From contig NZ_FMZI01000002.1 in the NCBI RefSeq assembly GCF_900101505.1, positions 124,001 through 188,000 of the forward strand: a stretch of DNA of 64,000 bases. Reading direction: 5' to 3'. This document shows positions 23,853 through 45,869 of the stretch, one piece after another. A program made the position numbers and the translations under genes. The notes beneath the pieces were generated by a model. It worked only from the letters and a program-made list of their open reading frames with translations, made no database searches and was not told the origin of the DNA. Position 1 is the first letter of the stretch. Every line of letters starts with the position of its first letter. This DNA comes from Antarctobacter albus (GTDB taxonomy: Bacteria > Pseudomonadota > Alphaproteobacteria > Rhodobacterales > Rhodobacteraceae).

Positions 23853-23929
<77 letters not shown>

Positions 23930-23980: not shown

Positions 23981-24204
23981 GAAAACGCGGGTGCAGATTT
24001 CACGTTTTGGGGGCAAAGATTAATCTCAGCGCCTAGCAACGCAGCGCCGAAATTTTGAACCAAACGCGAACCATTTCCGTAAGTTTGCGGAGGTCCCAAG
24101 GCGTGAAGCCGACTTGGCCGTCAGATCCATGCCAAATGATAGCTCTAGTGGATTGAACGCGACGAAGGAGGCCGAATTGGGATTCCATTCTGGCGTTGGC
24201 TGTA

Positions 24205-31765: not shown

Positions 31766-32089
31766 TGCCGATCCTCCAACCCAGTGTGGGAATTGAATCA
31801 GCCAGAGGCACCTCGATCAAGCACGAGCTTTTCAACGGAATAAGCCCACCTGCCTATGATCTTCGCGGTCGCAGCGAGGGCCGAGCACCCTTGGAGAATG
31901 GCACGAATGTCCGCTTAGCAGCCCTACGCGAGCAGTTCGCATGAGCCGCGAACGACGGTTCGAGTTGTCTGATTCAATCCACTAGAACATCCGAGGCAAA
32001 CGAGGTTTTCTGTCGGCTCCTTGCATCTGCATGCATTGGCAAAGTAGCGTCAGGCAATATTCCTTTTTGTGAGCAGTTGGGTGTGGCAG
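31766..32089. other. 324 bp upstream of hsdR, no gene seen
   Basis: Contains the upstream flank of the IS1182-type transposase and the presumed hsd promoter region. No good sigma70 pair or operator is evident. Confidence 0.45.
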
Positions 32090-34543
32090 ATGGACAAGCG
32101 GAGTTTGAGCGAGCGCGATATCTGCACGAAGTTCATCACCCCGGCCCTTGTCTCTGCTGGGTGGAACATCACGACCCAGATCCGCGAAGAGGTCAGCTTC
32201 ACCAAAGGCCGTATCATCGTGCGGGGCAAGATGGTCAGCCGTGGTGAGGGAAAACGGGCTGACTACATCCTCTCTGCCAAGCCCAATATACCAATCGCGA
32301 TCATCGAAGCGAAGGACAACAAGCAACCCATCGGTGGTGGGATACAGCAGGCCCTGGGCTATGCCGAAACGCTGGATATCCCGTTCGTGTTTTCTTCGAA
32401 TGGTGACGGCTTCGTTTTCCACGACCGAACGGGCACGTCATCCGAGGTTGAACAGACCTTGGGATTGGATGAGTTTCCCAGCCTTGAGGAGCTTTGGCAC
32501 CGCTACAAGGTTTGGAAGGGCCTGACCGACGCGGAAGAACAAGTTGCACTTCAGGACTACCACGACGACGGATCGGGCAAGGAGCCGCGCTACTATCAGG
32601 TCAAGGCCATCAACAAGACGATGGAGGCGATCGCCAAAGGGCAAGATCGGGTGTTGCTCGTCATGGCGACCGGGACGGGCAAGACCTATACGGCGTTTCA
32701 GATCATCTGGCGCTTTCGCAATGCCTTCCCGGGGAAACGTGTGCTGTTCCTGGCCGATCGCAACGTGCTGATCGACCAGACCATGGTCAACGATTTCCGG
32801 CCGTTCAGCGGCAAGATGGCGAAACTGTCGACGCAGTCGAAGACCATCGAGCGTCCTGACGGCACCAAGGAAAGCGTGCCCCTCGCGCTGGACAAAAAGC
32901 GCCGGATCGACTCGTCTTACGAGATTTACCTTGGGCTGTATCAGGCGATCACCGGGCCGAACGAGAGCCAGAAGATCTACCGGGAATTTTCCAAGGACTT
33001 CTTCGACCTGATCATCATTGACGAATGTCACCGGGGCAGCGCATCGGCGGACTCAGCCTGGCGCGAGATCCTCGATCACTTCTCATCCGCCGTGCAGATC
33101 GGCCTGACGGCGACGCCGAAAGAAACCGAATACGCCTCGAACATCGATTACTTCGGCGCTCCGGTCTACAGCTACACCTTGAAGCAAGGCATCCGCGACG
33201 GTTTCCTCGCGCCCTACAAGGTCATCAAGGTCCATATCGACCGCGACGTGCAGGGGTATCGTCCCGAGAAGGGGCAGTTGGATCGCGACGGCGAGGAGGT
33301 CGAGGATCGCATCTACAACGCCAAGGACTTCGATCGAACCGTGGTGCTGGACGACCGGACCAAGCTCGTCGCGAAGAAGGTGACCGAGTTCCTGCGCGAA
33401 AGCGGAGATCCCATGGCGAAGACTATTGTGTTCTGCGTGGATCAGGAACACGCGGCACGCATGAGGCAGGCCTTGATCAACGAGAATGCCGACCTCGTCG
33501 CGAAAAACGCGCGCTATGTCATGCGCATCACCGGGAACGACAAGGAAGGGATCGATCAACTCGGAAACTTCATCGACCCCGAGGCTTCCTACCCCGTGAT
33601 CGTCACGACTTCCAAGCTGCTGTCCACCGGTGTCGATGCCCAGACCTGTCGCTTGATCGTCCTCGATCGCGAAGTCGGGTCGATGACCGAATTCAAGCAG
33701 ATCGTCGGGCGCGGAACGCGCGTGCACGAGGACACCCGTAAACTGTTCTTCACGCTGATGGATTTCCGTGGGGCGTCGAGCCACTTCGCCGATCCCGACT
33801 TCGACGGCGAACCGGTCCAGATCTACCAGCCCGGGCCGGACGATCCTGTGACCCCACCGGACGAGACCCCAACCAACAATGATGACACCTCGATCCCGGA
33901 TGACATCGGTGAGAACGAGACCGTTCTGATCGATCCGCGCAACGTCACCATCACAAGCGACACCAGCACCGGCCCGCGCCCCAAGGCCTACATCGACGGC
34001 GTGGGGGCGGATATCGTGGCCGAGCGCGTCGAATACCTCGACGAAAACGGGAAGCTCGTGACAGAGTCCCTACGCGACTACACACGCAAGGCCATGCGCC
34101 AGCACTTCACCAGTCTCGACGATTTTCTACGCCGCTGGAAGCAGACCGAGCGCAAGAACGCCCTGATCGAAGAACTGGCCGAAGAAGGGCTGCCCCTCGA
34201 CGTGATCGCCGACGAACTGGGCCTCGACCTCGATCCCTTCGACCTGATCTGCCACGTCGCCTTCGATGCCAAGCCGCTGACCCGCAAGGAGCGCGCCGAG
34301 AACGTCAAGAAACGCGATGTCTTCACCAAATACGGCCCACAGGCACGTGCAGTCCTCGAAGCCCTGCTCGAGAAATACTCCGACGACGGCGTCATCAGCA
34401 TCGATGACCCCAAGATCCTGAAAATCAATCCCTTCTCAGGTATGGGCACCGAGGTTGAACTGATCCGGGCTTTCGGTAAGAAACCGGACTACATCCGCGC
34501 CGTGCATGAAATGCAGGCCGCGCTCTACGAAGAAAGTGCTTAA
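32090..34543 (+). CDS. hsdR: Type I restriction enzyme, R subunit (EcoEI-like)
   Basis: About 817 aa from ATG 32090 (an upstream GTG adds seven residues; neither has a strong ribosome site). HsdR cleaves unmodified DNA after ATP-driven translocation. An N-terminal PD-(D/E)xK nuclease region is visible (KRADYILSAKPNIPIAIIEAKDNK: D, ExK). A superfamily 2 motor follows: Walker A MATGTGKTYTA, DEAD-box-like IIDECHRGS, motif III GLTATPKET, motif VI IVGRGTRVHED. The C-terminal helical part ends in KINPFSGMGTEVEL, typical of EcoEI-type HsdR. It precedes hsdM by three bases. Confidence 0.95.
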   Translation: MDKRSLSERDICTKFITPALVSAGWNITTQIREEVSFTKGRIIVRGKMVSRGEGKRADYILSAKPNIPIAIIEAKDNKQPIGGGIQQALGYAETLDIPFVFSSNGDGFVFHDRTGTSSEVEQTLGLDEFPSLEELWHRYKVWKGLTDAEEQVALQDYHDDGSGKEPRYYQVKAINKTMEAIAKGQDRVLLVMATGTGKTYTAFQIIWRFRNAFPGKRVLFLADRNVLIDQTMVNDFRPFSGKMAKLSTQSKTIERPDGTKESVPLALDKKRRIDSSYEIYLGLYQAITGPNESQKIYREFSKDFFDLIIIDECHRGSASADSAWREILDHFSSAVQIGLTATPKETEYASNIDYFGAPVYSYTLKQGIRDGFLAPYKVIKVHIDRDVQGYRPEKGQLDRDGEEVEDRIYNAKDFDRTVVLDDRTKLVAKKVTEFLRESGDPMAKTIVFCVDQEHAARMRQALINENADLVAKNARYVMRITGNDKEGIDQLGNFIDPEASYPVIVTTSKLLSTGVDAQTCRLIVLDREVGSMTEFKQIVGRGTRVHEDTRKLFFTLMDFRGASSHFADPDFDGEPVQIYQPGPDDPVTPPDETPTNNDDTSIPDDIGENETVLIDPRNVTITSDTSTGPRPKAYIDGVGADIVAERVEYLDENGKLVTESLRDYTRKAMRQHFTSLDDFLRRWKQTERKNALIEELAEEGLPLDVIADELGLDLDPFDLICHVAFDAKPLTRKERAENVKKRDVFTKYGPQARAVLEALLEKYSDDGVISIDDPKILKINPFSGMGTEVELIRAFGKKPDYIRAVHEMQAALYEESA

Positions 34544-34546
34544 CCA

Positions 34547-35995
34547 ATGTCCGTCCGCAACCTCGTCAAATCCATCCAGGACATCATGCGTAAGGACACC
34601 GGCGTCGACGGTGACGCGCAGCGCATGTCGCAGCTGGTCTGGATGTTCTTCCTCAAGATCATGGACGATCAGGACGAGGCGCTGGAAATCACGCTGGACG
34701 ACTACACCTCGCCCATCCCCGAGGACCTGCAATGGCGCTCTTGGGCGGCCGATCCCGAGGGCATCACCGGCGACAGCCTGCTGGCCTTCGTCAATGACGA
34801 GCTCTTCACGCGCCTCAAGATCCTGTCGCCCCAGAAAGGCCCCCGCGCCAAGGTCGTGCGCGACGTCTTCGAGGACGCCTACAACTACATGAAATCCGGC
34901 CAGCTCATGCGGCAGGTGATCAACAAGATCAACGAGGTCGACTTCAACAATCTGTCCGAGCGCCAGCACTTCGGCGACATCTACGAACAGCTGCTGAACG
35001 ACCTCCAGAACGCGGGCAACGCCGGCGAATACTATACGCCCCGCGCCGTCACCGCCTTTATGGTGCAGCAGGTGGACCCGAAGCCCGGCGAAATCCTCAT
35101 GGACCCGGCCTGCGGCACCGGTGGCTTCCTGACCTGCGCCATGCGCCACATGCGCGATACCCACATCAAGCGCCCCGAGGACGAGACGCTGATGCAGGCC
35201 TCCCTGCGCGCCGTCGAGAAGAAACCGCTCCCCCACATGCTCTGCGTCACCAATATGCTGCTGCACGGGGTGGAGGAGCCGTCCTGGGTACGCCATGACA
35301 ACACGCTCGCCCGCCCACTGGTCAGCTGGGGACAGGCGGACAAGGTCGACATCGTCCTGTCCAACCCGCCCTTCGGCGGCAAGGAGGAGGACGGGATCGA
35401 GAACAACTTCCCCACCTTCCGCACCCGCGAAACCGCCGACCTCTTCCTCGCCCTCATCATTCGCCTGCTCAAGGATACGGGCCGCGCCGCCGTGGTCCTG
35501 CCCGATGGCTCGCTCTTTGGCGAGGGCATCAAGACCCGGCTCAAGGAACACCTGCTTGAGGAATGCAACCTGCACACCATCGTGCGGCTGCCGAACTCGG
35601 TCTTCAAACCCTACGCCTCCATCGGCACCAACCTGCTGTTCTTTGAAAAGGGCACGCCTACGCAGGACATCTGGTATTGGGAACACCGCGTGCCAGAGAC
35701 GCAGAAGGCCTATTCCATGACCAAGCCAATCCGGCTGGAGCATCTGGACGACTGCGCCGCATGGTGGGGCGGGCCGACCCGCGAGGGGCGGCAGGAAAGC
35801 GAGCGCGCCTGGAAGGTGTCGATCAACGAGATCCGCGAACGCGGCTTCAACCTCGACATCAAAAACCCGCATGTCGTCGAAGAGGACTGGGGCGACCCCG
35901 AGACCTTGCTGAACGACCTGACCAAGGCCGAGGCCTCGGTCGACAGTCTGCGGGCCGAGCTGAAAGAAATTCTGACGGAGGCATTGGCACGATGA
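34547..35995 (+). CDS. hsdM: Type I restriction-modification, N6-adenine methyltransferase subunit
   Basis: 482 aa. HsdM N-terminal helical domain (VRNLVKSIQDIMRKDTGVDG, LVWMFFLKIMDDQ), then the methyltransferase: motif I DPACGTGGFLTCAM and catalytic motif IV SNPPFGGKEEDG, with YTPRAVTAFMV before motif I. Full length. The stop overlaps the next start in ATGA, so translation is coupled. With HsdS it methylates the host target; with HsdR it restricts. Confidence 0.96.
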   Translation: MSVRNLVKSIQDIMRKDTGVDGDAQRMSQLVWMFFLKIMDDQDEALEITLDDYTSPIPEDLQWRSWAADPEGITGDSLLAFVNDELFTRLKILSPQKGPRAKVVRDVFEDAYNYMKSGQLMRQVINKINEVDFNNLSERQHFGDIYEQLLNDLQNAGNAGEYYTPRAVTAFMVQQVDPKPGEILMDPACGTGGFLTCAMRHMRDTHIKRPEDETLMQASLRAVEKKPLPHMLCVTNMLLHGVEEPSWVRHDNTLARPLVSWGQADKVDIVLSNPPFGGKEEDGIENNFPTFRTRETADLFLALIIRLLKDTGRAAVVLPDGSLFGEGIKTRLKEHLLEECNLHTIVRLPNSVFKPYASIGTNLLFFEKGTPTQDIWYWEHRVPETQKAYSMTKPIRLEHLDDCAAWWGGPTREGRQESERAWKVSINEIRERGFNLDIKNPHVVEEDWGDPETLLNDLTKAEASVDSLRAELKEILTEALAR

Positions 35996-37074
35996 CCAAG
36001 CCCGCTTTTTCCGATTATGCCATTGGGCGACTCAGGGCTGCAAAAGCTGCCATGTTGGAGGACCGCGAAGTCAGCGAAATCCTCGAGGCAAAAGACAGTG
36101 TTCTGGCGCGCTACAGCCCCACGTTCCAGCCAAATCAAATCTCTCATATCGAAGAAGACGTCCTCCGGTCGTTCTTGTATTTCGAGAACAACAGGCACTG
36201 GACGGGACTAAACCGGCAAGTGAACCGCATCTGTGGTGACATGGCGACAACGCGCGTGGCGCTGACACATCTTGTGGACGAAAGCCGCCCAATTGCGGAC
36301 CGCCTGCAGCCGGTTACCGATATCAGGGGCATGGGAAAAGGGATCATCACGGCAATCCTGCACGTTGCCTACCCCGACAGATACGGCGTCTGGAACAACA
36401 CGTCCCATGCAGGGCTGATGGAACTGGGCTTGATGCCTGACATTCCCCGCGGCGCGCAATTCGGAACGCGGTTTGCCGCTGTAAATGAAGTCTTCGTGGC
36501 TTTGAGCCAGGTCCTCGACATTGATCTCTGGACCCTTGATGCCGCGTGGTGGTTCCTCAAGGACGACGACAACACCGATGACGATTATGACGACGAACCG
36601 TCTCCGGTGCAGGCACATACGGCAAAGCCCAACGTTGTCCGCGCAAAACGGTTCTCCCTCGAACGGCACCTGCACGACTACATGAGCGACAACTGGGACA
36701 CGCTTGACCTTGCCCAAGACTGGGAAATCTACGCTCGGGATGGCGAACCGGATGCAGGCTACGAATTCGTCACCCCGGTCGGCCGCATCGACTTGCTGGC
36801 AAAGCACAAACGGGAACGGCGCTGGCTGGTGATCGAACTCAAACGCGAAAAATCCTCGGATGCAGTCGTCGGTCAGGTCTTGCGATACATAGGCTGGGTG
36901 CAACGCCACCTGATCGACTCTGGCGAAACGGTCGAGGGGCTTGTGGTCGCCACCGAAGGCGACCCACAGCTGCACTATGCGCTCGACGTTGTGCCGAAGG
37001 TATCTTTCAAATCCTATGAGGTCGAATTTCGCCTGAAGGATGGCCCGACCTTTGAAGAGTATCAGAAGCCATGA
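35992..37074 (+). CDS. NucS-like (DUF91-type) nuclease domain protein embedded in the hsd operon
   Basis: 360 aa, coupled to hsdM (ATGA) and to hsdS (ATGA). Residues 60-190 look like a helix-hairpin-helix DNA-binding fold (ITDIRGMGKGIITAILHVAYP-type segment, YGVWNNTSHAGL). An acidic linker (DDDNTDDDYDDE) follows. The C-terminal 110 residues match the NucS/DUF91 catalytic region: GRIDLLAKHKRERRWLVIEL with K after EL, then QVLRYIGWVQ, giving a D...ExK...Q nuclease signature. It could add a second cleavage activity or a repair function to the RM system. Not a standard hsd gene. Confidence 0.75.
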   Translation: MTKPAFSDYAIGRLRAAKAAMLEDREVSEILEAKDSVLARYSPTFQPNQISHIEEDVLRSFLYFENNRHWTGLNRQVNRICGDMATTRVALTHLVDESRPIADRLQPVTDIRGMGKGIITAILHVAYPDRYGVWNNTSHAGLMELGLMPDIPRGAQFGTRFAAVNEVFVALSQVLDIDLWTLDAAWWFLKDDDNTDDDYDDEPSPVQAHTAKPNVVRAKRFSLERHLHDYMSDNWDTLDLAQDWEIYARDGEPDAGYEFVTPVGRIDLLAKHKRERRWLVIELKREKSSDAVVGQVLRYIGWVQRHLIDSGETVEGLVVATEGDPQLHYALDVVPKVSFKSYEVEFRLKDGPTFEEYQKP

Positions 37075-38771
37075 ACGCGGAACGGTTGCTGGACGTCTAC
37101 GAGCAGATCAGTGAGGCGCCGGATGCCATCGCCCGGCTGCGGCGCTTCGTGCTGGATCTGGCGGTGCGTGGGAAGCTGGTGGAGCAGGATGCGGACGATG
37201 AGCCGGCATCCACACTGATGAAAGCAGCAAAGGGTCTACAAACCAAGGAAGACGTCAAGATCAAAGCCGACCCATTGCAGCCCAACGAAACGCCCTTTCC
37301 GGCTCCGCTCGGGTGGCTCTGGACGCGTGTCGGTCTGATCGCTTTGCAGACAGGGTCCGGCAGCACCCCTCGCGGCGGAAAATCCGCATACGCCGACGAA
37401 GGCACGTCGTTTCTGAGGTCCCAGAATATCTACGACGATGGTCTCCGACTGGATGACGTGGTGTTCATTAACGACGAAACCAACCAGAAGATGAAGCGCA
37501 CGCAGGTCAAGGCAAAGGACCTGCTGCTGAATATCACTGGCGGGTCGATCGGCCGCTGCACGCGCGTTCCCGACGAGTTCGCAGGCGCAAACGTCAGCCA
37601 GCACGTCGCGATCATTCGCACTGCCGCCCCTGGGACAGAAGACTACCTGCACCTTCTGGTCAGGTCACCATTTTTTCAGGAGTACGTAGTCGGAGAACAG
37701 ACCGGCGCAGGGCGTGGTGGGCTACCGAAGAACCGTATGGACCGCATCCCAGTCCCGCTTCCCCCTCTCGCCGAACAGCACCGGATCGTCGCCAAGGTCG
37801 ATGAGCTCATGGCGCTTTGTGATAGACTGGAGGAGGCCCGCAAGACGCGGGAGGAGGTGCGCGACAAGCTCACCGCCGCCAGCCTCGCCCGCCTGACCGC
37901 CTCGGACACCACGGCAGAGGACTTCCCCACCTACGCCGCCTTCGCCCTCGAGGCGCTCCCCGCCCTCACCACGCGCCCCGACCAGATCAAAACCCTCCGC
38001 CAAACCATCCTCAACCTCGCCGTCCGCGGCAAACTGGTAGAACAGGACCCGGCGGATGATCGTGACAATCAGGGCCTCTTACGTCCGGACAATGAGGCCG
38101 AGAGCTATGATAGCCGTTCATTCAATGACCGAGCCTCTCTTTTCACGCTGCCAGAAGGCTGGACTATCCAACCACTCTCACGCGTCGCCGAACGAATTGT
38201 GGATTGTCCGCACACGACGCCGAAGTGGACGGATTCTGGCGTCCTTTGCATCAAAACAAACCAAGTTCGCGCGGGATTGCTTGACTTGAGTGCGCCCAAC
38301 TTCGTTAGCGAAGAAACCTACAGTATTCGAATTGAGCGCCTCACCCCGAAATCTGACGACATTCTTTACATCAGAGAAGGTGGAATTCTTGGCGTAGGCT
38401 GCCGCATTCCGAAAGATACCCGGCTCTGCATGGGGCAGCGCCTTATGCTGATCCGTGCAAACGGATCCGTTGCTCCGGCATTCCTCGAACTGTGCCTGAA
38501 CTCGCCTTGGATAGCCGATTTTGCGGCCGAAAAGACGACTGGCGGAGCTGCGCCAAGAGTGAATATGGCATTGGTTCGAGGCTATCCGATCCCGGTGCCG
38601 CCCCTCGCCGAACAACACCGCATCGTGGCCAAGGTCGACACCCTCATGGCCCTTTGCGACCGGCTGGAGGCCGCCCTGACCACCGCCGACACCACCCGCA
38701 CCCGTCTCCTCGGAGTCCTCCTCCACGAGGCGCTGGACCCCGCCACCGACACCCTGAAAGCCGCCGAATGA
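37071..38771 (+). CDS. hsdS: Type I restriction-modification, specificity subunit
   Basis: 566 aa. Two target recognition domains (about 65-215 and 340-500), each followed by a conserved helical segment (PLPPLAEQHRIVAKVDELMALCDRLE and PVPPLAEQHRIVAKVDTLMA), the classic HsdS architecture. The TRDs determine the bipartite target, which cannot be read here. It overlaps the NucS-like gene upstream and the next cargo gene downstream (ATGA). Its last 126 bp occur again, diverged, at 39144-39270. Confidence 0.95.
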   Translation: MNAERLLDVYEQISEAPDAIARLRRFVLDLAVRGKLVEQDADDEPASTLMKAAKGLQTKEDVKIKADPLQPNETPFPAPLGWLWTRVGLIALQTGSGSTPRGGKSAYADEGTSFLRSQNIYDDGLRLDDVVFINDETNQKMKRTQVKAKDLLLNITGGSIGRCTRVPDEFAGANVSQHVAIIRTAAPGTEDYLHLLVRSPFFQEYVVGEQTGAGRGGLPKNRMDRIPVPLPPLAEQHRIVAKVDELMALCDRLEEARKTREEVRDKLTAASLARLTASDTTAEDFPTYAAFALEALPALTTRPDQIKTLRQTILNLAVRGKLVEQDPADDRDNQGLLRPDNEAESYDSRSFNDRASLFTLPEGWTIQPLSRVAERIVDCPHTTPKWTDSGVLCIKTNQVRAGLLDLSAPNFVSEETYSIRIERLTPKSDDILYIREGGILGVGCRIPKDTRLCMGQRLMLIRANGSVAPAFLELCLNSPWIADFAAEKTTGGAAPRVNMALVRGYPIPVPPLAEQHRIVAKVDTLMALCDRLEAALTTADTTRTRLLGVLLHEALDPATDTLKAAE

Positions 38772-39127: not shown

Positions 39128-39143
39128 ATCCTCGTCGTCCTTG

Positions 39144-39270
39144 TGTGGCCCTCTGCGACCGGCCGGAGGCCGCCCTCACCAACGCCGACACCACCCGCAC
39201 CCGCCTCCTCGAAGCGCTCCTCCACGAGGCGCTGGACCTCGCCTCCGGCACCCTGAAAGCAGCCGAATGA
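39144..39270 (+). pseudogene. hsdS: Duplicated 3' tail of hsdS
   Basis: One frame reads VALCDRPEAALTNADTTRTR and LLEALLHEALDLASGTLKAAE then stop, matching the hsdS C-terminus (ALCDRLEAALTTADTTRTRL, LLHEALDPATDTLKAAE). No start codon or TRD remains. Its stop overlaps the next start in ATGA, exactly as hsdS does with its own downstream gene. Confidence 0.9.
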
Positions 39271-39860
39271 CAGAAGACGGCACCCCCTTCGAGATCGGCG
39301 CGGCGAACGTGCGATCCTGGGAAAAGGTGCGGCCCATCTTTCACGAGTATTTCCAATTCTGGCCCGACCATGAGGATCTGATCTGGGCCAAATCCGTTTG
39401 GCCTATCCTCGACGATGCCGGTTTCTTTGCAGACTTCGACGAAGAGGCCGATGCATGGGTCCGCAGAAACGTCCTCGCCCTGGCCATCTTGTACGCGGAA
39501 TCCGCTGTGCGCTTCGGCACGCCGGATTACCAATGGTTGGACAAATTGGAGCGCGGATGGCTGACGGTTTTCTTCGGCTCGCGTGAGAACCTCGACGACA
39601 CCCTGTGGGAGATCGGGAGCACGTTGTCGCAACACTACGACATCGACCATTGGAGCGAGGGCAACGCCGGCCTGTTCCTTCCCCTCATCCGCAGTTTGGT
39701 CACCGGCAGCGGCTTTCATACCGAAGGCCCCGAGCTTGATGCCTATCTCGAACGCGCATGGAAGCACCATCCGGATATGTGCGAGTTTCGGGAGGATGAA
39801 TTACACCGGATGTGGGTCGGCGGGCATTTTTCCTCAGCACAGATGGCTTGTTTTCCCTGA
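39267..39860 (+). CDS. 197-aa unknown protein behind the duplicated hsdS tail
   Basis: The ATG sits in the ATGA overlap with the duplicated hsdS tail. The product is acidic and Trp-rich (WEKVRPIFHEYFQFWPDHED, IWAKSVWPILDDAGFFADFDEE, WLDKLERGWLTVFFG) and predicted largely helical, without a recognised family. The second half is soluble (HHPDMCEFREDELHRMWVG). It looks like a stand-alone cargo gene brought in behind an hsdS copy. Function unknown. Confidence 0.65.
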   Translation: MTEDGTPFEIGAANVRSWEKVRPIFHEYFQFWPDHEDLIWAKSVWPILDDAGFFADFDEEADAWVRRNVLALAILYAESAVRFGTPDYQWLDKLERGWLTVFFGSRENLDDTLWEIGSTLSQHYDIDHWSEGNAGLFLPLIRSLVTGSGFHTEGPELDAYLERAWKHHPDMCEFREDELHRMWVGGHFSSAQMACFP

Positions 39861-40067: not shown

Positions 40068-40619
40068 TCATGGCGGTTTGGTCTTCAAATCGAACTGTCG
40101 ACGCTTCTGCAATACCTCGATCCTCGCTTTCAATTCCTCGTCAGACAGAGCGGCCGTTGCCGCGCACTTCGGGCATTCGTTCTTATCTTCACCGCCGCCC
40201 CCGCTCGTCGCGCTCCAGTCATGTCGGCGGCGCACTTGCAGCCAATGGATTGCCGCCTTGGTGTCGGGAGGGATCTCTGTCAGGGTCTGGGTGACGACGA
40301 TCTCGCCTTGTTTGTTTTTCATTGCCCTCTCCGATTTTATGGTCATCCCTGCGGCGCGCTTGTATAGCGCCAAAGAAACTTCGGCGTCGGCGATTTCTTT
40401 TCCGCTGTGGACTGCGTCACGAAAACCGGGATTTTCAGCCTTCCAGCGATGGAAGGTGTTGCGGCTGACATCAAAAAATCGGGCCATTTCAGCCTCGGTA
40501 TGGCCGAGCAGCGATAGCTTGTAGGCCTGCTCATCCATAGCCGGATCGTAACCACATTTGCGGCCAGGGCCGGGTTCCGTACCGTTCAAATAACGGCCTG
40601 TCTCATCTCGCTTTTCCAT
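40068..40619 (-). CDS. Terminase small subunit-like protein
   Basis: 183 aa. The N-terminal half has a helix-turn-helix of the terminase small subunit type (YKLSLLGHTEAEMARFFDVS then TFHRWKAENPGF), followed by the helical oligomerisation part (GKEIADAEVSLALYKRAAG, TEIPPDTKAAIHWLQVRRR). A C-terminal CPKCAA pair and a basic tail follow. Phage TerS proteins recognise the packaging site; in phage satellites a lone TerS diverts packaging to satellite DNA. It is preceded on the strand by a TerL fragment and lies at the inner edge of the int-alpA-rep block. Confidence 0.8.
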   Translation of the reverse strand: MEKRDETGRYLNGTEPGPGRKCGYDPAMDEQAYKLSLLGHTEAEMARFFDVSRNTFHRWKAENPGFRDAVHSGKEIADAEVSLALYKRAAGMTIKSERAMKNKQGEIVVTQTLTEIPPDTKAAIHWLQVRRRHDWSATSGGGGEDKNECPKCAATAALSDEELKARIEVLQKRRQFDLKTKPP

Positions 40620-40652
40620 TTTTCCTCAAGAATGTTCTATGTTGATGGGAGG

Positions 40653-41081
40653 TCACAGATTGGAGAGAGTGAAGGCCAAGTCGAGGCGTGTTCTTACCCG
40701 CTCGACATGGTCGATCTTAAGCTGCGGGCTGCGCCGGATCGTGAAGGCTTCTTGCTCATCCTCGGGAAGCGACCGGATGAAGCCCACCACGAAGTCAAAC
40801 GCGATGCGCGCCTGATCCCGCGTTCGGGCCGCTATCAGGATTTCACGCCGGGGCTGACGATCCCAGACGCACTTGACCGCGCCAAGGGCGATGATCGCCG
40901 ACGGGGCGGTTTTCGCATTGCCCCTGCCGATGCGCAGACAGGCCACGTTCACCCCGTCCGCTAAGGCACCCTTTACGAATCTCTTTTGGAACGGGGCTAA
41001 CTTCACCGCCTGACCGGCTTTCGGCCCCTCGGGGATGCTCAGGCTTTCAAGAAAGCGGGTTGTAGACATGGGGGAGGTCAT
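40653..41081 (-). CDS. Terminase large subunit, N-terminal fragment
   Basis: 142 aa starting at an ATG with GGGAG seven bases upstream. It carries the TerL ATPase start: KLAPFQKRFVKGALADG, Walker A-like IGRGNAKTAPSA and EILIAARTRDQARIAFDF. The frame ends after ERVRTRLDLAFTLSNL, well short of the usual 450-600 residues; Walker B and the nuclease domain are absent. So the motor is non-functional alone. It stands upstream of the TerS-like gene, the reverse of normal phage order. Confidence 0.75.
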   Translation of the reverse strand: MTSPMSTTRFLESLSIPEGPKAGQAVKLAPFQKRFVKGALADGVNVACLRIGRGNAKTAPSAIIALGAVKCVWDRQPRREILIAARTRDQARIAFDFVVGFIRSLPEDEQEAFTIRRSPQLKIDHVERVRTRLDLAFTLSNL

Positions 41082-41095
41082 GCAAGCACTCCCCT

Positions 41096-41323
41096 ATGAA
41101 AACGAGGATTCTGACAATTCTCGCTGCGGTCACTCTTGGAACTCAATCGGTAGAGGCAGGCCGCTATGGACCAGACGACAGCGAAAAAATCCTTATGGAA
41201 GGCGAGGTAATTGCTTACGCGGCTCAAAACGGATTTGGCCTCGTCGTGCGCTACCGCAACGAAATCTTCCTCTGCCGAGTCGGTACGAAAACTGTGGAGA
41301 ACAAAAGGGTGATGGAGACCTAG
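41096..41323 (+). CDS. Small secreted protein, unknown
   Basis: 75 aa. The N-terminus is a clean signal peptide (MKTRILTILAAVTLGTQSVEA). The mature part of about 54 residues has one cysteine and beta-type composition (MEGEVIAYAAQNGFGLVVRY, NEIFLCRVGTKTV). It is the only plus-strand gene inside the satellite-like block and lies divergent from the TerL fragment with 14 bp between starts. Unknown; could be a surface or exclusion factor, but this is guesswork. Confidence 0.55.
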   Translation: MKTRILTILAAVTLGTQSVEAGRYGPDDSEKILMEGEVIAYAAQNGFGLVVRYRNEIFLCRVGTKTVENKRVMET

Positions 41324-41424
41324 TGTATGGATAACGGTAGGGACTGACCTAGCAATCCTGCATAGCGCGAAAGCGCAAGTTAGCCCCCCGATTTCCTGTC
41401 CTCCTAAGATCGGAGGCATTGGGA

Positions 41425-41514
41425 TCAGATCAGGACCACCACCAAATTCAGAGCAGCCCCAACGGGCAAGGCAACGCCCAAAGGCGCGCCGCAAAGAAAC
41501 GGCAGGGTTATCAT
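41425..41514 (-). CDS. 29-aa hydrophobic micro-ORF
   Basis: The ATG overlaps the stop of the preceding 56-aa ORF (ATGA), and GAGG lies eight bases upstream. The peptide MITLPFLCGAPLGVALPVGA then ALNLVVVLI is almost wholly hydrophobic, long enough for one membrane helix. It resembles small membrane toxins or holin-like peptides in character only. Real translation is suggested by the chain of overlaps from the rep gene, not proven. Confidence 0.4.
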   Translation of the reverse strand: MITLPFLCGAPLGVALPVGAALNLVVVLI

Positions 41515-41681
41515 TGAAAGACCTCGATTGGTTGAAATTGCCCCACCCCACGCCAAACAGGTGATGCACGCCCCACCACCCCCGCCCCCCCCTTTAGGGG
41601 CGGGGTGGTGTGGCACCTGTTTTCAGGGGAGTTTGCCCCACCTTGCCACACCATGCTTTCAGGGGTGGGTGTGGCACTCAT
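41511..41681 (-). CDS. 56-aa micro-ORF coupled to the rep gene
   Basis: The start overlaps the stop of the RepA-like gene (ATGA) and the stop overlaps the next micro-ORF. The product is Gly/Pro/Thr-rich (MSATPTPESMVWQGGANSPE, TPPLKGGAGVVGRASPVWRG) and probably disordered. The DNA contains repeated TTTCAGGGG, GGTGTGGCA and GCCCCACC words, so the frame may be a by-product of cis-acting repeats. Confidence 0.4.
   Translation of the reverse strand: MSATPTPESMVWQGGANSPENRCHTTPPLKGGAGVVGRASPVWRGVGQFQPIEVFQ
41540..41676. repeat. Cluster of short repeats next to the rep gene (possible origin iterons)
   Basis: GCCCCACC at 41540, 41570 and 41635; GGTGTGGCA at 41607 and 41668 with its inverse TGCCACACC at 41644; TTTCAGGGG at 41621 and 41657. 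Dense direct and inverted words beside a RepA-like helicase gene suggest an origin; the region also holds a long C-run and a GGGGCGGGGTGG stretch. Confidence 0.4.
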
Positions 41682-42868
41682 TGGTTTGCCCATTCGCCTA
41701 CCTCCAAATAGGGACGTCCCATGCGCTTTGCGTCCGGTATCTTGACCTTTTTCAAAGCCCCGGATTTCAGCCACGCCTCGATCATTTTCTTGATGCGCTT
41801 GCGGTCCGCCGTGGCGTCCAGCCCCAGCGTCTCGGCCACGGTCACGCCCGCCCAATCGTCGCCAGCCTGATCCGAGTAGCGACAAGACAGCGTGTCTTTG
41901 CCGTCGAGAGCGCGTTGCACCAACAGCAGATCATCGACCGATACGCCGTCGAAAGTGTCGGGGGGCATCCATACTTCGCAGACGCCTACATTGTCGCCGT
42001 TGGCAAGGGAGACGGTTGCCATGCGCCGCCATTCCCGCGCCCCCTCTGGTGCGAGGTTTGCCTTGTCCCTGTTGATTCCAAAGAACGTGGCCGGATCATC
42101 CATCAGCCCCCACTTCTCTCGCAAAGTTGGGTGCATCTTGTTGAGCACTCGACCCAACCGCGCCGCCGCCAGCAGGGCAGATGCACCGCGCCCGCTTTCG
42201 GTCGTTGCTTCCTCGCCATTGGTCTTGCGGGTGTGGTGGACCAGTTCGATTGCGCAGTTGCACCGATCCGCCAGACGCGCCCATTCCTTTGCCACCAGGT
42301 CGATTGCGCCGTTGTCGTTTTCGGACGCTTGATGCGATGACACGAAAGGGTCGATCACCAGCACGTCGATTTCCCGCACCTCGATCTCATCGGCCAGCGC
42401 ATCCAGTTCCGGCTTGATGATCTGAACGCCTTCACGGGTTTGGATCGCCGTGCTCAGGGCACGTTCCCGGCCCGTGTCCACATAGAGCCGCCCCGCGATT
42501 TCCTCGGGGCTGACGTGGTGGTGTTGCATCGCCGCGATGATGCGACGATCCATTTCGTCGCGCGGGTCTTCAAGGTTGTAGAGCCAGACCTTGAGGCCCT
42601 TGGTCGTCCAGTCGCCTAGCAGTTCCCGCCCGGATGCCATCGCCAGCGCCTCACAGATCGTCAGAGACGATTTCCCAACGCCGCCGGGGGCAACCGTCAC
42701 CGATACTTGTTTGCGGATCAGGTGACGCCCATAAACCCAAGGGCGAGGGGGAATGCTGGACGGGTCACGCCAGACAAATTCGGTTGGCAGGCGGTCCCCC
42801 CGATTACGGGGAAACTCGGCCCGGTGCGCGTGAAGCTGCATCGCCATGTCAGAAAAGTCACGCGCCAT
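41678..42868 (-). CDS. RepA-like/AAA_25 hexameric helicase
   Basis: About 396 aa. An ATG at 42868 overlaps the upstream stop (TGATG); a GTG one codon earlier is possible. RecA-fold motifs: Walker A TVAPGGVGKSSLT (about residue 62), Walker B DVLVIDPF, and a Q/H motif ELVHHTRK, as in RSF1010 RepA-type helicases found in plasmids, satellites and prophages. A winged-helix-like C-terminus follows (DATADRKRIKKMIEAWLKSGALKKV). It probably unwinds the element's origin. It is the middle of a coupled chain: 133-aa ORF, rep, 56-aa ORF, 29-aa ORF. Confidence 0.85.
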   Translation of the reverse strand: MARDFSDMAMQLHAHRAEFPRNRGDRLPTEFVWRDPSSIPPRPWVYGRHLIRKQVSVTVAPGGVGKSSLTICEALAMASGRELLGDWTTKGLKVWLYNLEDPRDEMDRRIIAAMQHHHVSPEEIAGRLYVDTGRERALSTAIQTREGVQIIKPELDALADEIEVREIDVLVIDPFVSSHQASENDNGAIDLVAKEWARLADRCNCAIELVHHTRKTNGEEATTESGRGASALLAAARLGRVLNKMHPTLREKWGLMDDPATFFGINRDKANLAPEGAREWRRMATVSLANGDNVGVCEVWMPPDTFDGVSVDDLLLVQRALDGKDTLSCRYSDQAGDDWAGVTVAETLGLDATADRKRIKKMIEAWLKSGALKKVKIPDAKRMGRPYLEVGEWANQ

Positions 42869-43269
42869 CACGCCGCTTGCCTCCCCTGCACATGGTCAAG
42901 GAAAGCCGCCTGCCGACCGCGCGGCATGGCGTTGAAGCTGGCAAGGCAATAGGCTTCCAGCTCCTCGGGATCAGCCATATCGGCCCAGAACGCCGCCTGA
43001 TCCATGAAGCCAAAGAACGGGGCTTGAGGTTGTCCAGCGCCAGCACAAAGCGCCGCCTCAGCCGTCATCGTGGCGTCATCGCGATCCTGTGACTTGAGCG
43101 CCATGAAGGCCAGCGCGGCCCGTTCCTCGACCGTGAGACGCGCCATGAGCACTGGCGCAACGCCCAACCATGCTTCCTGGCTTCCCAGTGTCAAAGTATA
43201 CCTAAGCATCCGCACCACCTTGAGGTGTCGAGATTTCATTTGCGCTGAAAACGAAGGTTGATTTCTCAT
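42868..43269 (-). CDS. 133-aa unknown protein upstream of the rep gene
   Basis: Mostly helical, alanine-rich (VAPVLMARLTVEERAALAFMAL, MTAEAALCAGAG, MADPEELEAYCLASFNAM). The stop overlaps the rep start, so the two are coupled. It has no recognised domain. Start uncertain: MRNQPS at 43269, or downstream methionines. Proteins of this kind are common before rep genes in Rhodobacteraceae elements; possibly a replication accessory. Confidence 0.6.
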   Translation of the reverse strand: MRNQPSFSAQMKSRHLKVVRMLRYTLTLGSQEAWLGVAPVLMARLTVEERAALAFMALKSQDRDDATMTAEAALCAGAGQPQAPFFGFMDQAAFWADMADPEELEAYCLASFNAMPRGRQAAFLDHVQGRQAA

Positions 43270-43479
43270 TCCGAGAACCCCAAGCAGAGTGAGATTATCG
43301 GATGACGTGCCACCAGAGATGCGCTATCGGATTCGATGAACTTTTGCGCTTCGTAGGTTCCTTCAGCGCCGTTGCGGGGTCCAAGCCGCAGCGGCGCCTT
43401 CCTTTTTGGGAACACTCGGAAGATTTTCGACCGACTGCGCGGTGCCACAAATTTCAGGGCTGGCGAAGAGGTGTTTCAT

Positions 43480-43665
43480 CTACACCTCCTGCACTTCGCG
43501 GCTTTCGAGCCACGCGTTGATGTCGCTTTCACGCCATGCGACAAGGCGAGCGCCGAGTTTGAGCGGTTGCGGAAAATCCCCTTTCTTCATCCAGTCGTAA
43601 AGGGTGGAGCGCGAAAGACCGGTGCAGGCTTCCACCTCGGGGCGGCGCAGCAGTTTTTGTGCCAT
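43480..43665 (-). CDS. alpA: AlpA-family excisionase/regulator
   Basis: 61 aa. The ATG at 43665 follows GAAAGGAACC. It is a classic AlpA/MerR-like HTH: LLRRPEVEACTGLSRSTLYD, WMKKGDFPQPLKLGARLVAW and ESDINAWLESREV. AlpA proteins bind the attachment region as excision factors and act as the activator of Gram-negative phage satellites. It lies between the replication genes and the integrase, as expected of such elements. Confidence 0.92.
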   Translation of the reverse strand: MAQKLLRRPEVEACTGLSRSTLYDWMKKGDFPQPLKLGARLVAWRESDINAWLESREVQEV

Positions 43666-43706
43666 GTTGGTTCCTTTCGGTACCTGTTGAACATGACGAT
43701 AAACCT

Positions 43707-43760
43707 CGCACTCGCTTGAGCGTGCGTCTGTGGGGGAAACCCTAGGGGTTATCCCCTCAC
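43707..43760. promoter_or_regulatory. Two imperfect palindromes upstream of alpA
   Basis: GTGGGGGAAACCCTAGGGGT continuing TATCCCCTCAC (43730-43760) is a near-palindrome of about 31 bp. CGCACTCGCTTGAGCGTGCG (43707-43726) is a second inverted repeat. Both lie between the unknown HTH gene and alpA and could be operators or a terminator. Confidence 0.4.
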
Positions 43761-44329
43761 GGAGGCCTCGTTTCGCGGTTTGTTTTGTATCTTGCGCCGG
43801 CCGTCCGCAGCGCGCTCGGAAACTTCTCAACTGGGGTGATCGTGAGCCCGCGGAAAATCTCGCCACGATTCTTTTCCCAGTCTCGAACCGTAGAGCGGTC
43901 AACTTCAAAAGCTTCCGTAACACTTTTTATGAATGATCTGTCGGATATTCTCGCCGCACGCGCGTGCTCGATATAACTGAGCGCGGTAGCGATATCCCGT
44001 CGCTCCGGAGGAGAACGAGACGGATGGCCGCCGGCGTTGATATCCTGCACGATTAGGGGAATGCGCCCGGCAGCAAAATGTTCGGCAAGCCCTGCAGCTC
44101 GGCCTATGGCTGCGCCGGGGAAAGGATACAGTGGGACACCCTTCCCCGGCTGCCCGAGCGAACGAAAGTATTCCGTCAAGACCATGGCGAGGGCTTCAAA
44201 CCACTCCCTTGCAAGTAGCTCGCGTCGCGCCGGTCCAAATTCCTTCGAGTCGTTGGAGGCCTTCTTGAATGCCTCTTCCTCTTTTCTCAACAAATCCGCC
44301 CAACGCTTTGAGCGTTCTGTTTCAATCAT
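43757..44329 (-). CDS. 190-aa putative HTH protein between int and alpA
   Basis: Charged helical N-terminus (RSKRWADLLRKEEEAFKKAS, ARRELLAREWFEALAMVLTEYF), then a stretch IPLIVQDINAGGHPSRSPPERRD, and a helix-turn-helix-like end (SFIKSVTEAFEVDRSTVRDWEKN). The C-terminal HTH suggests a DNA-binding regulator. No specific family is recognised. It may be the repressor of the element. The stop overlaps the palindromic region ahead of alpA. Confidence 0.6.
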   Translation of the reverse strand: MIETERSKRWADLLRKEEEAFKKASNDSKEFGPARRELLAREWFEALAMVLTEYFRSLGQPGKGVPLYPFPGAAIGRAAGLAEHFAAGRIPLIVQDINAGGHPSRSPPERRDIATALSYIEHARAARISDRSFIKSVTEAFEVDRSTVRDWEKNRGEIFRGLTITPVEKFPSALRTAGARYKTNRETRPP

Positions 44330-44523
44330 TTTGCCACTCCCAGTCTAACCAGGTTTGTATCCAACACTTGATACCTGAGCAGGAAACCCACCCATGCCGC
44401 CATCATGTCGCGTCGCCGGTCAACGTCAGGAATTCCAGCGCCCGCGCGGCCATTTCATCGCGTTGCCGCAGGTTACGTATGAGAGGGGCATGTGGCATTG
44501 CCGCGCGTGCAGTGCAGAGAAGC

Positions 44524-45684
44524 TCACAGTGTCAAGCTTCCTAAGGCTGACAGAGCCGCGTCGCTAGACAGATGCCCATAATGGCGCTCGATCATCTCCG
44601 CGCTGGTGCCTGAGATTTGCGCAATTGTCAGAAGTGGAAGCCCTGCGCTTACGAGGTCGGTAATGGTGCTGTGCCTCAAGGTGTAGGCCGTGGCTCCCTT
44701 TGGCAGACCAGCAGCTGCTATTGCAGACGCAATTGGTGATTTCCAACTGTCCTTGTTCCATGCTTTGCCGTTAGCCCGCATGAATAAGGGGGCATTGGGA
44801 TGCTTGTCCATTGACTTTTCCGCAAGGAGTCTGGCGGCCTCTGTGGGCAACTTGATACGGCGCGGCTTGCCTGTCTTGTCCTTACCGATAGAGAGTTCGG
44901 CAGTACGCCCATCGAAGTCGCCGGCGGTCAATGCGGCCATCGCGCCTGGACGCAGAGGCAGGAGGCAAAGCGCCCTCACAAAAGGTGCAGCTTCAGGCGC
45001 ACAGCACTCCACCAACTTTCGGCGTTGGTCCCGGTCAAGATAGAGAGTTCGCCGACCATTGGCATTTGGAAATGGTTTCAATCCTTCCTGCCAAGCGGCT
45101 TCAGAATTGGGCGCTCCTGCAGTCAGCACCTTCGCGAGCGCTGCGCGCAATACGGCCATATCGCGATTTACAGTGGAAAGCGCACGATCACGATAGAGGA
45201 GGGCGCCGTCTTGGCCTCGGCTTGCAGCAGAAGGCCTGGCCTTGAGACGCTCCCGCCATTCGCACAGGTGACGGCGACGCAGTTTGGCCAACTTCAGCCT
45301 GGCGATTGGATCATTGTAAACGTAGCGACCGAACCTTTGTTCAGCTTCGGGACGGGTCTTTGCGTATTCGCGGCAGGCATCCGCGACCGTTTCTACTTTC
45401 GTCTGCTCAATGCCACCAGATTCTACCATTTCAGCATGTGCTTCGGCTGCTCGTTTGGCGGCGCCAAACATCTCATTGCCGGGGAGGCTGCCAAAGTCGC
45501 CCAGAGACTTCACGCGATACTTTCCGGCATCCTCATCGTAGGCGCGGGCGGTCCAAGTCCCTTTGCCCCCGCACTTGGACCGGCGGAAGCCGAGAAAGCA
45601 CCCTGCTCGAAGTCTCTGCCAGTGAGGTTCGCGTTTAACAGGCAGCTGCTCACGGGCGCCGACTTTGCTCAGATCCAATGCCAT
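44524..45684 (-). CDS. int: Tyrosine site-specific integrase
   Basis: About 386 aa from ATG 45684 (MALDLSKVGAREQLPVKREP); an ATG 22 codons upstream is possible. The N-terminal arm-binding region (GAREQLPVKREPHWQRLR...KCGGKGTWTARAYDEDAG) is followed by a SAM-like core-binding domain. Catalytic residues: Arg in LLPLRPGAMAALT, Lys in GKDKTGKPRRIKLP, HxxR-type box TLRHSTITD, and Tyr in MIERHYGHL. It abuts attR and reads inward, so it is the integrase of the tRNA-Arg island. Confidence 0.95.
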   Translation of the reverse strand: MALDLSKVGAREQLPVKREPHWQRLRAGCFLGFRRSKCGGKGTWTARAYDEDAGKYRVKSLGDFGSLPGNEMFGAAKRAAEAHAEMVESGGIEQTKVETVADACREYAKTRPEAEQRFGRYVYNDPIARLKLAKLRRRHLCEWRERLKARPSAASRGQDGALLYRDRALSTVNRDMAVLRAALAKVLTAGAPNSEAAWQEGLKPFPNANGRRTLYLDRDQRRKLVECCAPEAAPFVRALCLLPLRPGAMAALTAGDFDGRTAELSIGKDKTGKPRRIKLPTEAARLLAEKSMDKHPNAPLFMRANGKAWNKDSWKSPIASAIAAAGLPKGATAYTLRHSTITDLVSAGLPLLTIAQISGTSAEMIERHYGHLSSDAALSALGSLTL

Positions 45685-45706
45685 AGCGTTCGCCTTCCAT
45701 GCCGGT

Positions 45707-45722
45707 GTATGTAATGAGTATG
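45707..45722 (+). repeat. Candidate integrase arm-type site, right
   Basis: GTATGTAATGAGTATG matches the left copy at 23965-23980 in 15 of 16 positions and the same orientation. It lies upstream of the int start, about 100 bp from attR. Confidence 0.5.
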
Positions 45723-45820
45723 AAATACGTCCTGGGAACACCTCGGACAAGGCAGGAAGTTAAGTATTTGTGGTTAAATGGATATGTGTTCCGGTGAGGT
45801 CTGGTGGCATCCAAAATTCC

Positions 45821-45869
45821 TGCCTTCCGAAGGCAGAGGCCATAGGTTCGAATCCTTTCGGGTGCGCCA
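45821..45869 (+). repeat. attR
   Basis: 49 bases matching the tRNA-Arg 3' part (23881-23929) with two mismatches, including one in the T-arm. No tRNA 5' half is present here. Confidence 0.92.

What the first reader, a model, noticed from the sequence alone, without database searches (positions are those of the whole stretch)
40068..45869. Int-AlpA-Rep-TerS block resembles a phage satellite
Seen: a minus-strand block with tyrosine integrase, HTH gene, AlpA, a 133-aa ORF, RepA-like helicase, micro-ORFs, a TerL fragment and a TerS-like gene, ending at a tRNA att site. Known: Gram-negative phage-inducible chromosomal islands typically carry int, alpA, a replication protein and a lone TerS, and lack capsid genes. 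Inferred: this is a Rhodobacteraceae phage satellite (or its decayed form) whose cargo includes a type I RM operon and a nitrilase cassette. No capsid, tail or lysis gene is visible.
Basis: partly seen in the sequence, partly recalled or inferred. Interest (0 to 1): 0.78.

Follow-up and report, generated by a model that had tools for sequence, protein, structure and literature searches.

The report
Gutted capsid-forming satellite carrying phage TerS
This is a bacterial parasite of phages whose relatives build their own virus heads; this copy has lost the head genes and carries a phage-type gene that chooses which DNA gets packaged, so it may show one kind of satellite turning into another.

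Summary
The block is real. On the minus strand, within 40068-45869, lie an integrase, a weak HTH protein, AlpA, a 133-aa protein, a RepA-like helicase, a TerL fragment and an intact TerS-family gene. It is the right quarter of a ~21.9-kb island (23886-45869) bounded by a 48/50 direct repeat of the 3' end of tRNA-Arg.

The closest relatives of the Rep, 133-aa and TerL genes are ~10-kb elements with a head module (TerL, head closure, HNH, major capsid, protease, connector, portal) and little room for tails: cfPICI-like, here in Rhodobacteraceae. The window copy is such an element with its head module deleted. Its 142-aa 'TerL fragment' is TerL codons 1-125 fused to a piece of HNH. It keeps the origin-like repeats and a conserved pre-TerL block (candidate cos site). 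A phrog_309 TerS plus type I restriction-modification cargo now fills the head slot.

Most likely a tail-stealing cfPICI converted towards a TerS-type packaging hijacker. The origin is well supported; mobility today is inferred. A non-mobile, decayed defence island is the main rival. A new variant of a known kind.

The parts
23853..23929 (+). intact tRNA-Arg (CCG), integration site at the left end of the island
   Evidence: ARAGORN
23880..23929 (.). attL: 3' end of tRNA-Arg (31-bp exact core 23886-23916)
45820..45869 (.). attR: duplicated tRNA-Arg 3' end (48 of 50 bp; exact core 45826-45856)
44524..45750 (-). tyrosine integrase, 408 aa
   Evidence: PF00589 and phrog_1
43757..44329 (-). 190-aa putative HTH protein between int and alpA
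   Evidence: weak HTH hit; no PHROG hit; at E<=1e-6 and 60% cover its seed found a single sequence in 199 loci that include the window's own copy
43480..43665 (-). AlpA regulator/excisionase, 61 aa
   Evidence: PF05930 8e-21; likely start
42868..43269 (-). 133-aa conserved protein (marker of this satellite family)
   Evidence: 80-85% identical in L147, L148, L149 and L026, 36-64% in the 11 others aligned, A3; helical model without credible PDB match
41678..42871 (-). RepA-like AAA_25 replication helicase, 397 aa
   Evidence: 92% identical to the Phaeobacter marinintestinus copy
41538..41680 (.). origin-like array (short direct and inverted repeats and a C-run/G-run hairpin) directly 3' of Rep
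41355..41430 (-). conserved block upstream of TerL, judged non-coding, candidate cos site; 12-mer core at 41415-41426 with 1 mismatch to the consensus
41096..41323 (+). 75-aa ORF with signal-peptide-like start (by eye), opposite strand, between candidate cos and TerL stub
   Evidence: gene status unproven
40653..41081 (-). TerL stub: codons 1-125 of a ~504-aa TerL fused in frame to an HNH fragment
40656..40725 (-). fragment homologous to the HNH gene of cfPICI-like relatives (deletion junction about 40703-40725)
40068..40619 (-). intact TerS-family gene, 183 aa, with a GAGGA ribosome-binding-like sequence
   Evidence: phrog_309 1.1e-34
39141..39860 (+). 239-aa ORF next to TerS, no PADLOC hit
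37071..38771 (+). HsdS, type I specificity subunit
   Evidence: PADLOC 2.3e-112
35980..37074 (+). PDC-S02-like candidate defence protein between HsdM and HsdS
   Evidence: PADLOC 4.5e-42
34547..35995 (+). HsdM, type I methyltransferase
   Evidence: PADLOC 1.3e-216
32069..34543 (+). HsdR, type I restriction enzyme
   Evidence: PADLOC E=0 as printed
30380..31765 (-). transposase ORF (IS1182-like by eye), inserted in the cargo
   Evidence: family name recalled, no family search other than PADLOC (no hit)
26950..28344 (+).
   Evidence: no Pfam hit at E<=1; no PADLOC hit

Best explanation
[quoted passage not shown] The ancestor had int, alpA, the 133-aa gene, rep, an origin, a cos-like block and a head operon. 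It would have replicated with Rep, packaged itself with its own terminase into its own heads, and used a helper phage only for tails. In this lineage a deletion joined TerL codon 125 to the HNH gene, and the other head genes are gone. A TerS gene of a family found in many tailed phages now sits directly behind the scar, followed by restriction-modification cargo. Most likely mechanism today: helper infection turns on AlpA; Int and AlpA excise the island at the tRNA-Arg repeat; Rep replicates it from the array behind rep; the island's TerS, perhaps using a pac-type site on the island, recruits a helper phage's TerL so that island concatemers go into helper virions. Shown by sequence: the ancestry, the scar, the open Int/AlpA/Rep/TerS frames, the att repeat, the retained repeats. 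Inferred: excision, replication, helper type, TerS-directed packaging.
For: Ancestry: window Rep is 92% identical to a head-bearing element in Phaeobacter marinintestinus and pairs with head-bearing viral contig L026 at 100/97 support. TerL codons 1-125 are 84% identical to the 504-aa TerL of L025. Head proteins sampled from three relatives (L118, L026, L122) match phrog_9 TerL, phrog_161 head closure, HNH families, phrog_10 capsid, phrog_80 protease and phrog_12 portal; the connector had no hit. Scar: in 5 of 5 loci aligned, TerL homology ends at 40703 or 40711 and HNH homology runs from 40739-40722 to 40656. The cos-like 12-mer, picked by eye, occurs with <=1 mismatch upstream of TerL in 83 of 92 rows (70 exact; rows include duplicate records and 3 copies of the window) against 0 of 92 base-shuffled controls, and within 1.5 kb behind Rep exactly in 5 of 50 named-genome loci, 4 of them TerL-bearing and one cut by its contig end. 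An origin-like array follows Rep in all 12 other relatives printed (by eye). TerS: phrog_309 1.1e-34. A lone TerS behind the same Rep/133-aa core recurs in Sulfitobacter brevis L159 (phrog_606 3.4e-41), whose contig ends soon after. A congener (G005) carries a phage-like locus with TerS of the same family (37%) followed by phrog_38 TerL and a portal.
Against: No second island with this TerS was found: 2 of 101 relatives match at E<=0.001 and 3 of 292 order genomes at E<=1e-10, the own genome counted in each. No prophage was identified in the own genome with phrog_2 or PF04860, only a GTA-like cluster and two weaker TerL hits. The island is ~22 kb with two transposase ORFs; a paper passage gives averages of 9.5 kb (PICI) and 14 kb (cf-PICI). 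The window's cos-like core has a mismatch at a base conserved in most relatives. Two distant loci flagged with TerL (L185, L190) lack the 12-mer. Foldseek matches to TerS structures are weak (best E 0.037), and a profile search of PDB sequences gave no significant TerS match. No clean empty site was found.
Confidence: 0.55

Rival explanations
1. A decayed, no longer mobile remnant of a cfPICI: head genes deleted, cargo and insertion sequences accumulated, kept because of its restriction-modification genes. TerS is an accidental leftover of a recombination with a phage.
For: TerL is truncated and fused to HNH; two transposase ORFs, one broken; large size; parallel case L149, where a 112-aa ORF holds only the first ~68 codons of TerL and is followed by a type III-like modification gene.
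Against: Int, AlpA, Rep, the 133-aa gene and TerS are all open, the origin-like array is kept, both att copies are 96% alike, and partial packaging modules behind this core recur in other islands.
Confidence: 0.35
2. The island is packaged through the retained cos-like block by the terminase and heads of a co-resident, intact cfPICI relative (a satellite of a satellite); TerS is irrelevant.
For: The block and the origin-like array are conserved parts kept between Rep and the scar.
Against: The block has a changed base in its 12-mer core, and that it is a cos site is not shown. The Rep search at E<=1e-15 found only one Rep in the own genome, so no close relative with such a Rep was seen there.
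Confidence: 0.05
3. A degraded ordinary prophage rather than a satellite.
For: Integrase, TerL and TerS fragments occur in prophages too; Rep relatives of 42-48% identity lie in contigs of 52-69 kb with longer Rep proteins (about 750 aa) next to terminase- and portal-like genes, by eye (L030, L031, L040), and two islands with this Rep carry tape-measure-like proteins (L157, L158).
Against: The close relatives that carry heads are ~10-kb elements; in L148 only about 1.9 kb lies between portal and integrase, in L225 about 1.4 kb between portal and contig end. The 133-aa gene was not found in the stretches held of L030, L031 or L040. The int-alpA-Rep-array order is satellite-like.
Confidence: 0.05

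Closest known systems
Capsid-forming PICI (cfPICI; prototype EcCIEDL933, known here only through citing papers)
   Same: int, alpA, Rep, then terminase, head closure, HNH, capsid, protease, connector and portal in the relatives, with little room for tails; the window keeps the front half, the TerL start and an HNH piece.
   Different: The window copy has no head module left, a truncated TerL and a TerS not seen in the relatives. [quoted passage not shown] these are Rhodobacteraceae. I did not place the capsid protein in the cfPICI capsid tree.
Gram-negative PICI (EcCICFT073, PmCI172 type; PMC6092414 passages)
   Same: int, alpA, replication gene, origin, and in some members a lone terS; no head genes.
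   Different: Rep is a RepA-like AAA_25 protein shared with cfPICI-like elements, and a TerL-HNH deletion scar lies in front of terS. EcCICFT073 itself lacks TerS and uses Rpp with a cos site (PMC6092414, PMC6739421 passages).
PICMI (Vibrio; PMC10803314 passages)
   Different: PICMI115 has six genes and a fis target; here a tRNA-Arg target, TerS and a TerL scar.
VEIMEs and Tycheposons (marine elements named in PMC10803314 and PMC11389934)
   Same: Mobile elements of marine bacteria described as transduced or encapsidated; overlap with this family is possible.
   Different: Not compared: their papers did not appear in the library searches and no sequence was tested.
Sulfitobacter brevis island L159 (this study)
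   Same: int - 133-aa gene - Rep - origin-like array - TerS.
   Different: Its TerS is family phrog_606; no TerL was detected and no cos-like block in the ~1.4 kb behind Rep; the contig ends soon after TerS.

Membership tests
cfPICI | encodes its own head module (capsid, portal, protease, closure, TerL) | tested here: not met
   Only TerL codons 1-125 and an HNH piece remain; no DNA match to other head genes of the fetched loci in 23000-47000. Met in relatives.
cfPICI | int, alpA and replication module of this lineage | tested here: inconclusive
   Met for Rep, 86-92% identical to head-bearing L147, L148 and L150, and for the 133-aa protein, 84% and 85% to L147 and L148, 57% to L150. AlpA is only 37-48% similar where found, and the window integrase had no close match among the head-bearing relatives.
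cfPICI | uses helper tails to form particles | not testable with these tools
   needs experiment
PICI | specific attachment sites | tested here: met
   48/50 direct repeat at tRNA-Arg
PICI | AlpA-type regulator and replication gene followed by an origin | tested here: met
   origin by position and repeat structure only
PICI | no phage structural genes; optional lone terS | tested here: met
   but reached by loss, see the scar
PICI | phage-dependent induction, packaging and interference | not testable with these tools
   needs experiment
PICMI | int-alpA-primase (DUF3987/DUF5906) with fis target | tested here: not met
   Rep is AAA_25; target is tRNA-Arg
terminase small subunit, phrog_309 | sequence family | tested here: met
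   1.1e-34 over residues 19-137
terminase small subunit, phrog_309 | TerS fold | tested here: inconclusive
   model of HTH, long helix and hairpin, mean pLDDT 67.5; top Foldseek rows are TerS but none with E<=0.001; no significant PDB sequence match

The most novel reading that the evidence does not exclude
Alphaproteobacterial satellites share one int-alpA-133aa-Rep-origin chassis whose slot behind the origin is swapped between packaging strategies: full heads, TerS alone, capsid with TerS, large virion-like proteins, or defence cargo. The window is a caught-in-the-act conversion from a tail-stealing capsid-forming satellite to a TerS-based packaging hijacker, with the scar still readable and a candidate cos site left behind.
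Probability: 0.45. Interest if true: 0.72.

Novelty: new variant of a known kind. Interest (0 to 1): 0.55.

Why it matters
How satellites change packaging strategy is open. A 2024 review (PMC11389934, passages read) sets out reductive and de novo models and says that the step from defective element to efficient hitcher may be a key bottleneck. This island offers a readable intermediate, and its relatives give head-bearing and head-less versions with replication proteins 77-92% identical to it, so the conversion can be tested in the laboratory. It also points to cfPICI-like satellites in Rhodobacteraceae with a conserved candidate cos site. Seven searches of the paper library showed no paper on satellites of that group among the rows listed; several searches matched more papers than were listed, and the library lacks most subscription papers; the original cfPICI paper did not appear.

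Tried and rejected
Prophage remnant: judged unlikely, because close head-bearing relatives are ~10 kb with no room for tails and the order is satellite-like; distant Rep relatives in phage-sized contigs were not fully annotated. TerS native to this cfPICI lineage: not supported; no TerS hit at E<=1e-5 in the 117 loci except the window's own copies (L001, L003) and L002, which was fetched by TerS itself. The 163-aa ORF 41078-41569 as a gene: rejected; it overlaps the candidate cos block and relatives match it over 27 codons only (its one-sequence model also hits ORFs spanning the same block in L223 and L046). The conserved pre-TerL block as TerL coding sequence: rejected, because its distance to TerL varies from 69 to 779 nt among rows with at most one mismatch and is often not a multiple of three. 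Clean empty site: not obtained. tRNA-Arg is present in five congeners, but in none does window sequence from 45870 on follow it directly: in G005 window 50.4-53.7 kb lies about 5 kb beyond, in G002 window 57.9 kb about 0.2 kb beyond, in G001 only ~1.3 kb of contig lies beyond. 133-aa protein fold: helical model, mean pLDDT 82, no credible PDB match. HNH piece as a clue to the TerS source: too short (67-85 nt) to decide. TerS loci from viral contigs: a TerL-like neighbour was seen by eye in three of four listed (L129, L133, L136), and no HNH directly before TerS in those four.
Full report
What is there. On the minus strand of 40068-45869 lie, in transcription order, a tyrosine integrase, a 190-aa putative HTH protein, AlpA (likely 61 aa), a 133-aa protein, a RepA-like AAA_25 helicase, a TerL piece and a TerS-family gene. 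ARAGORN finds one tRNA in the window, tRNA-Arg(CCG) at 23853-23929. Its 3' end is repeated at 45820-45869, 48 of 50 bases, with a 31-base exact core. G+C per kb is 0.54-0.64 inside and 0.61-0.73 outside.

What the relatives are. A scan of IMG/VR with the TerL piece gave 268 confirmed stretches, of which the best 80 were kept; one with Rep gave 17. In the closest, the order is 133-aa gene, Rep, TerL (504 aa in L025), head closure, HNH, capsid, protease, connector, portal, within about 10 kb, with the closure gene placed differently in some. PHROG, on proteins sampled from L118, L026 and L122, confirms TerL (phrog_9, 2.5e-62), head closure (phrog_161, 4.3e-21), HNH (phrog_144, 3.6e-20), capsid (phrog_10, 2.4e-13), protease (phrog_80, 2.5e-16) and portal (phrog_12, 1.9e-6); the connector had no hit. 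Of 14 viral loci found with the 133-aa protein, 11 have TerL, HNH, capsid, protease and connector in this order (10 also the portal; L026 ends before it; TerL is split into several ORFs in L041 and L225), two (L230, L231) have another arrangement with a phrog_83-like TerS model hit, and one (L232) shows only HNH of the head genes. That collection holds sequences called viral, so it favours head-bearing elements. Tails: I ran no tail profiles on the head-bearing elements. In L148 only about 1.9 kb lies between portal and integrase, and in L225 about 1.4 kb between portal and contig end; the longest ORFs there are 223 aa and 257 aa. This is the content of a capsid-forming PICI as a paper passage lists it: capsid, portal, maturation protease, adapter, closure, HNH, terminases (PMC13230959). 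Rep relatives of 42-48% identity also lie in contigs of 52-69 kb with longer Rep proteins (about 750 aa) and, by eye, terminase and portal genes (L030, L031, L040); these may be full phages and were not annotated further.

In genomes, 19 of 394 genomes of the same family, the own one included, have a Rep match at E<=1e-15. A scan of 84,980 species gave 53 loci; 3 of these 53 carry the head module of this type (L147 Phaeobacter marinintestinus, L148 Maritimibacter sp., L150) and one (L149) a TerL stub; L185 and L190 have weaker TerL hits of another kind. Several loci are cut by contig ends (for example L151, L154, L172).

The scar. TerL homology in the window ends at 40703 (40711 in L048), and HNH homology of the same relatives covers 40739-40722 down to 40656, in the same orientation, in 5 of 5 loci aligned; the overlap is a short stretch shared by the TerL and HNH genes. 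In L026 the two points are about 1.6 kb apart. So an internal deletion with microhomology is the simplest reading, and the 142-aa ORF is a fusion stub. No other head gene of the fetched loci matched by DNA in 23000-47000. TerS starts 33 bases after the stub's stop codon. The HNH piece (73-79% identical) is more diverged than the TerL piece (86-91%), so it could also have arrived with TerS; it is too short to decide.

Ancestry. In a tree of 33 Rep proteins the window pairs with head-bearing L026 at 100/97 support; the wider group with L147 and L148 has 93/85. The labels head-bearing, head-less and stub need 6 changes on the tree, so the module is gained or lost often, and gains cannot be told from losses there; some 'head-less' rows are short contigs (L151 has the cos-like core before it ends). 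The scar itself shows loss in this copy. L149 is a second loss: a 112-aa ORF holding about the first 68 TerL codons, followed further on by a type III modification-like gene (PADLOC).

Non-coding parts. Directly behind Rep the window has an array of short direct and inverted repeats around a C-run/G-run hairpin; by eye the same layout, with changed repeat letters, follows Rep in all 12 other relatives printed. By position this fits an origin, as in PICIs where the replication gene is followed by ori (PMC6092414). Upstream of TerL lies a second block with the core GGTCCCAATGCC, chosen by eye. It has at most one mismatch in 83 of 92 TerL-bearing rows (70 exact; rows include duplicate records and three copies of the window) against 0 of 92 in one simple base shuffle per row. 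Of 53 named-genome loci, 50 had enough sequence behind Rep: 5 have the core exactly (L147-L150, TerL-bearing, and L151, cut by its contig end); the other 45 have 3 or more mismatches, among them L185 and L190, which carry weaker TerL hits. It seems to travel with this head module, hence the reading as a cos site, which is inference. The window keeps it with one mismatch.

TerS. The 183-aa protein hits phrog_309 at 1.1e-34, and tblastn finds 384 phage records, all below 60% identity; the 20 listed include podo- and siphovirus names and genomes of 39-54 kb. The model (mean pLDDT 67.5) has an HTH, a long helix and a beta hairpin; the top PDB folds are SPP1-like TerS (E 0.037) and Sf6 TerS (E 0.07, probability 0.97), weak by E-value. 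A profile search of PDB sequences gave no significant TerS match. It is rare: 2 of 101 relatives at E<=0.001 and 3 of 292 order genomes at E<=1e-10, own genome counted in both. In congener G005 it is followed by phrog_38 TerL and a portal, with tail-fibre, amidase and virion genes further on. Two island copies would be 43.9 kb, within the range of those phage genomes; a point worth testing, no more.

Swapped modules in relatives. Behind the same Rep and origin I found TerS (L159, phrog_606), capsid plus TerS with a protease-family member (L162; protease by clustering) or with a tape-measure protein (L158), capsid-like phrog_21712 proteins (L160, L164), phrog_5880 proteins (L155, L161, L164), a phrog_1916 protein with a weak tape-measure hit (L157) and a type IIG restriction gene (L156). 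A 607-aa protein in L169 had no hit. These are selected loci, not a census.

Cargo and host. The window cargo is a complete type I restriction-modification set with a PDC-S02-like protein between HsdM and HsdS, two transposase ORFs (one broken; by eye) and a 464-aa ORF that hit nothing in Pfam or PADLOC. In the own genome, phrog_2 and PF04860 found a cluster that looks like a gene transfer agent (gene order recalled, L222) and two weaker TerL hits, one of which I only listed as ORFs and one of which I did not open. So no helper is identified.

Literature. I read passages of PMC11389934, PMC10448857, PMC10803314, PMC6092414 (also its abstract), PMC6739421 and PMC13230959. The original cfPICI paper did not appear in the searches. 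[quoted passage not shown] Seven searches listed no report for Rhodobacteraceae among the rows shown; absence there is weak evidence.

Verdict. The island is a cfPICI derivative that lost its head module (about 0.9 by my judgement) and carries a phage-type TerS. That it now moves as a TerS hijacker is the best single mechanism (about 0.55); a non-mobile defence remnant is the main alternative (about 0.35).

Noticed in passing
window 23930 onward; L214-L218: What follows tRNA-Arg(CCG) differs from the window in all five congeners examined, as at an integration hotspot.
   Followed up: partly
L155:12440-15079, L160:11909-13705, L161:12141-13811, L164:11217-13154: Large proteins (556-879 aa) of phrog_5880 and/or phrog_21712 lie behind the Rep origin in head-less relatives; a recurrent virion-like module of unknown role.
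   Followed up: partly
window 41096-41323; L025 and L046 at the same place: A short plus-strand ORF with a signal-peptide-like start sits between the candidate cos block and TerL; L025 and L046 have different sequence inserted there, perhaps a moron slot.
   Followed up: no
L222 (own genome C22:238000-257900): A gene cluster with TerL and HK97-type portal looks like a gene transfer agent.
   Followed up: no
   Followed up: no
L149:11282-19242: Second cfPICI-like element with a truncated TerL, followed by a 1018-aa ORF and a type III modification-like gene.
   Followed up: partly
window 24196-25284: Broken transposase remnant (IS630-like by eye) just inside the left att site.
   Followed up: no
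L030, L031, L040: Longer Rep relatives (about 750 aa, 42-48% identical over the helicase part) in 52-69-kb contigs next to terminase- and portal-like genes; possible full phages sharing the replication module.
   Followed up: partly
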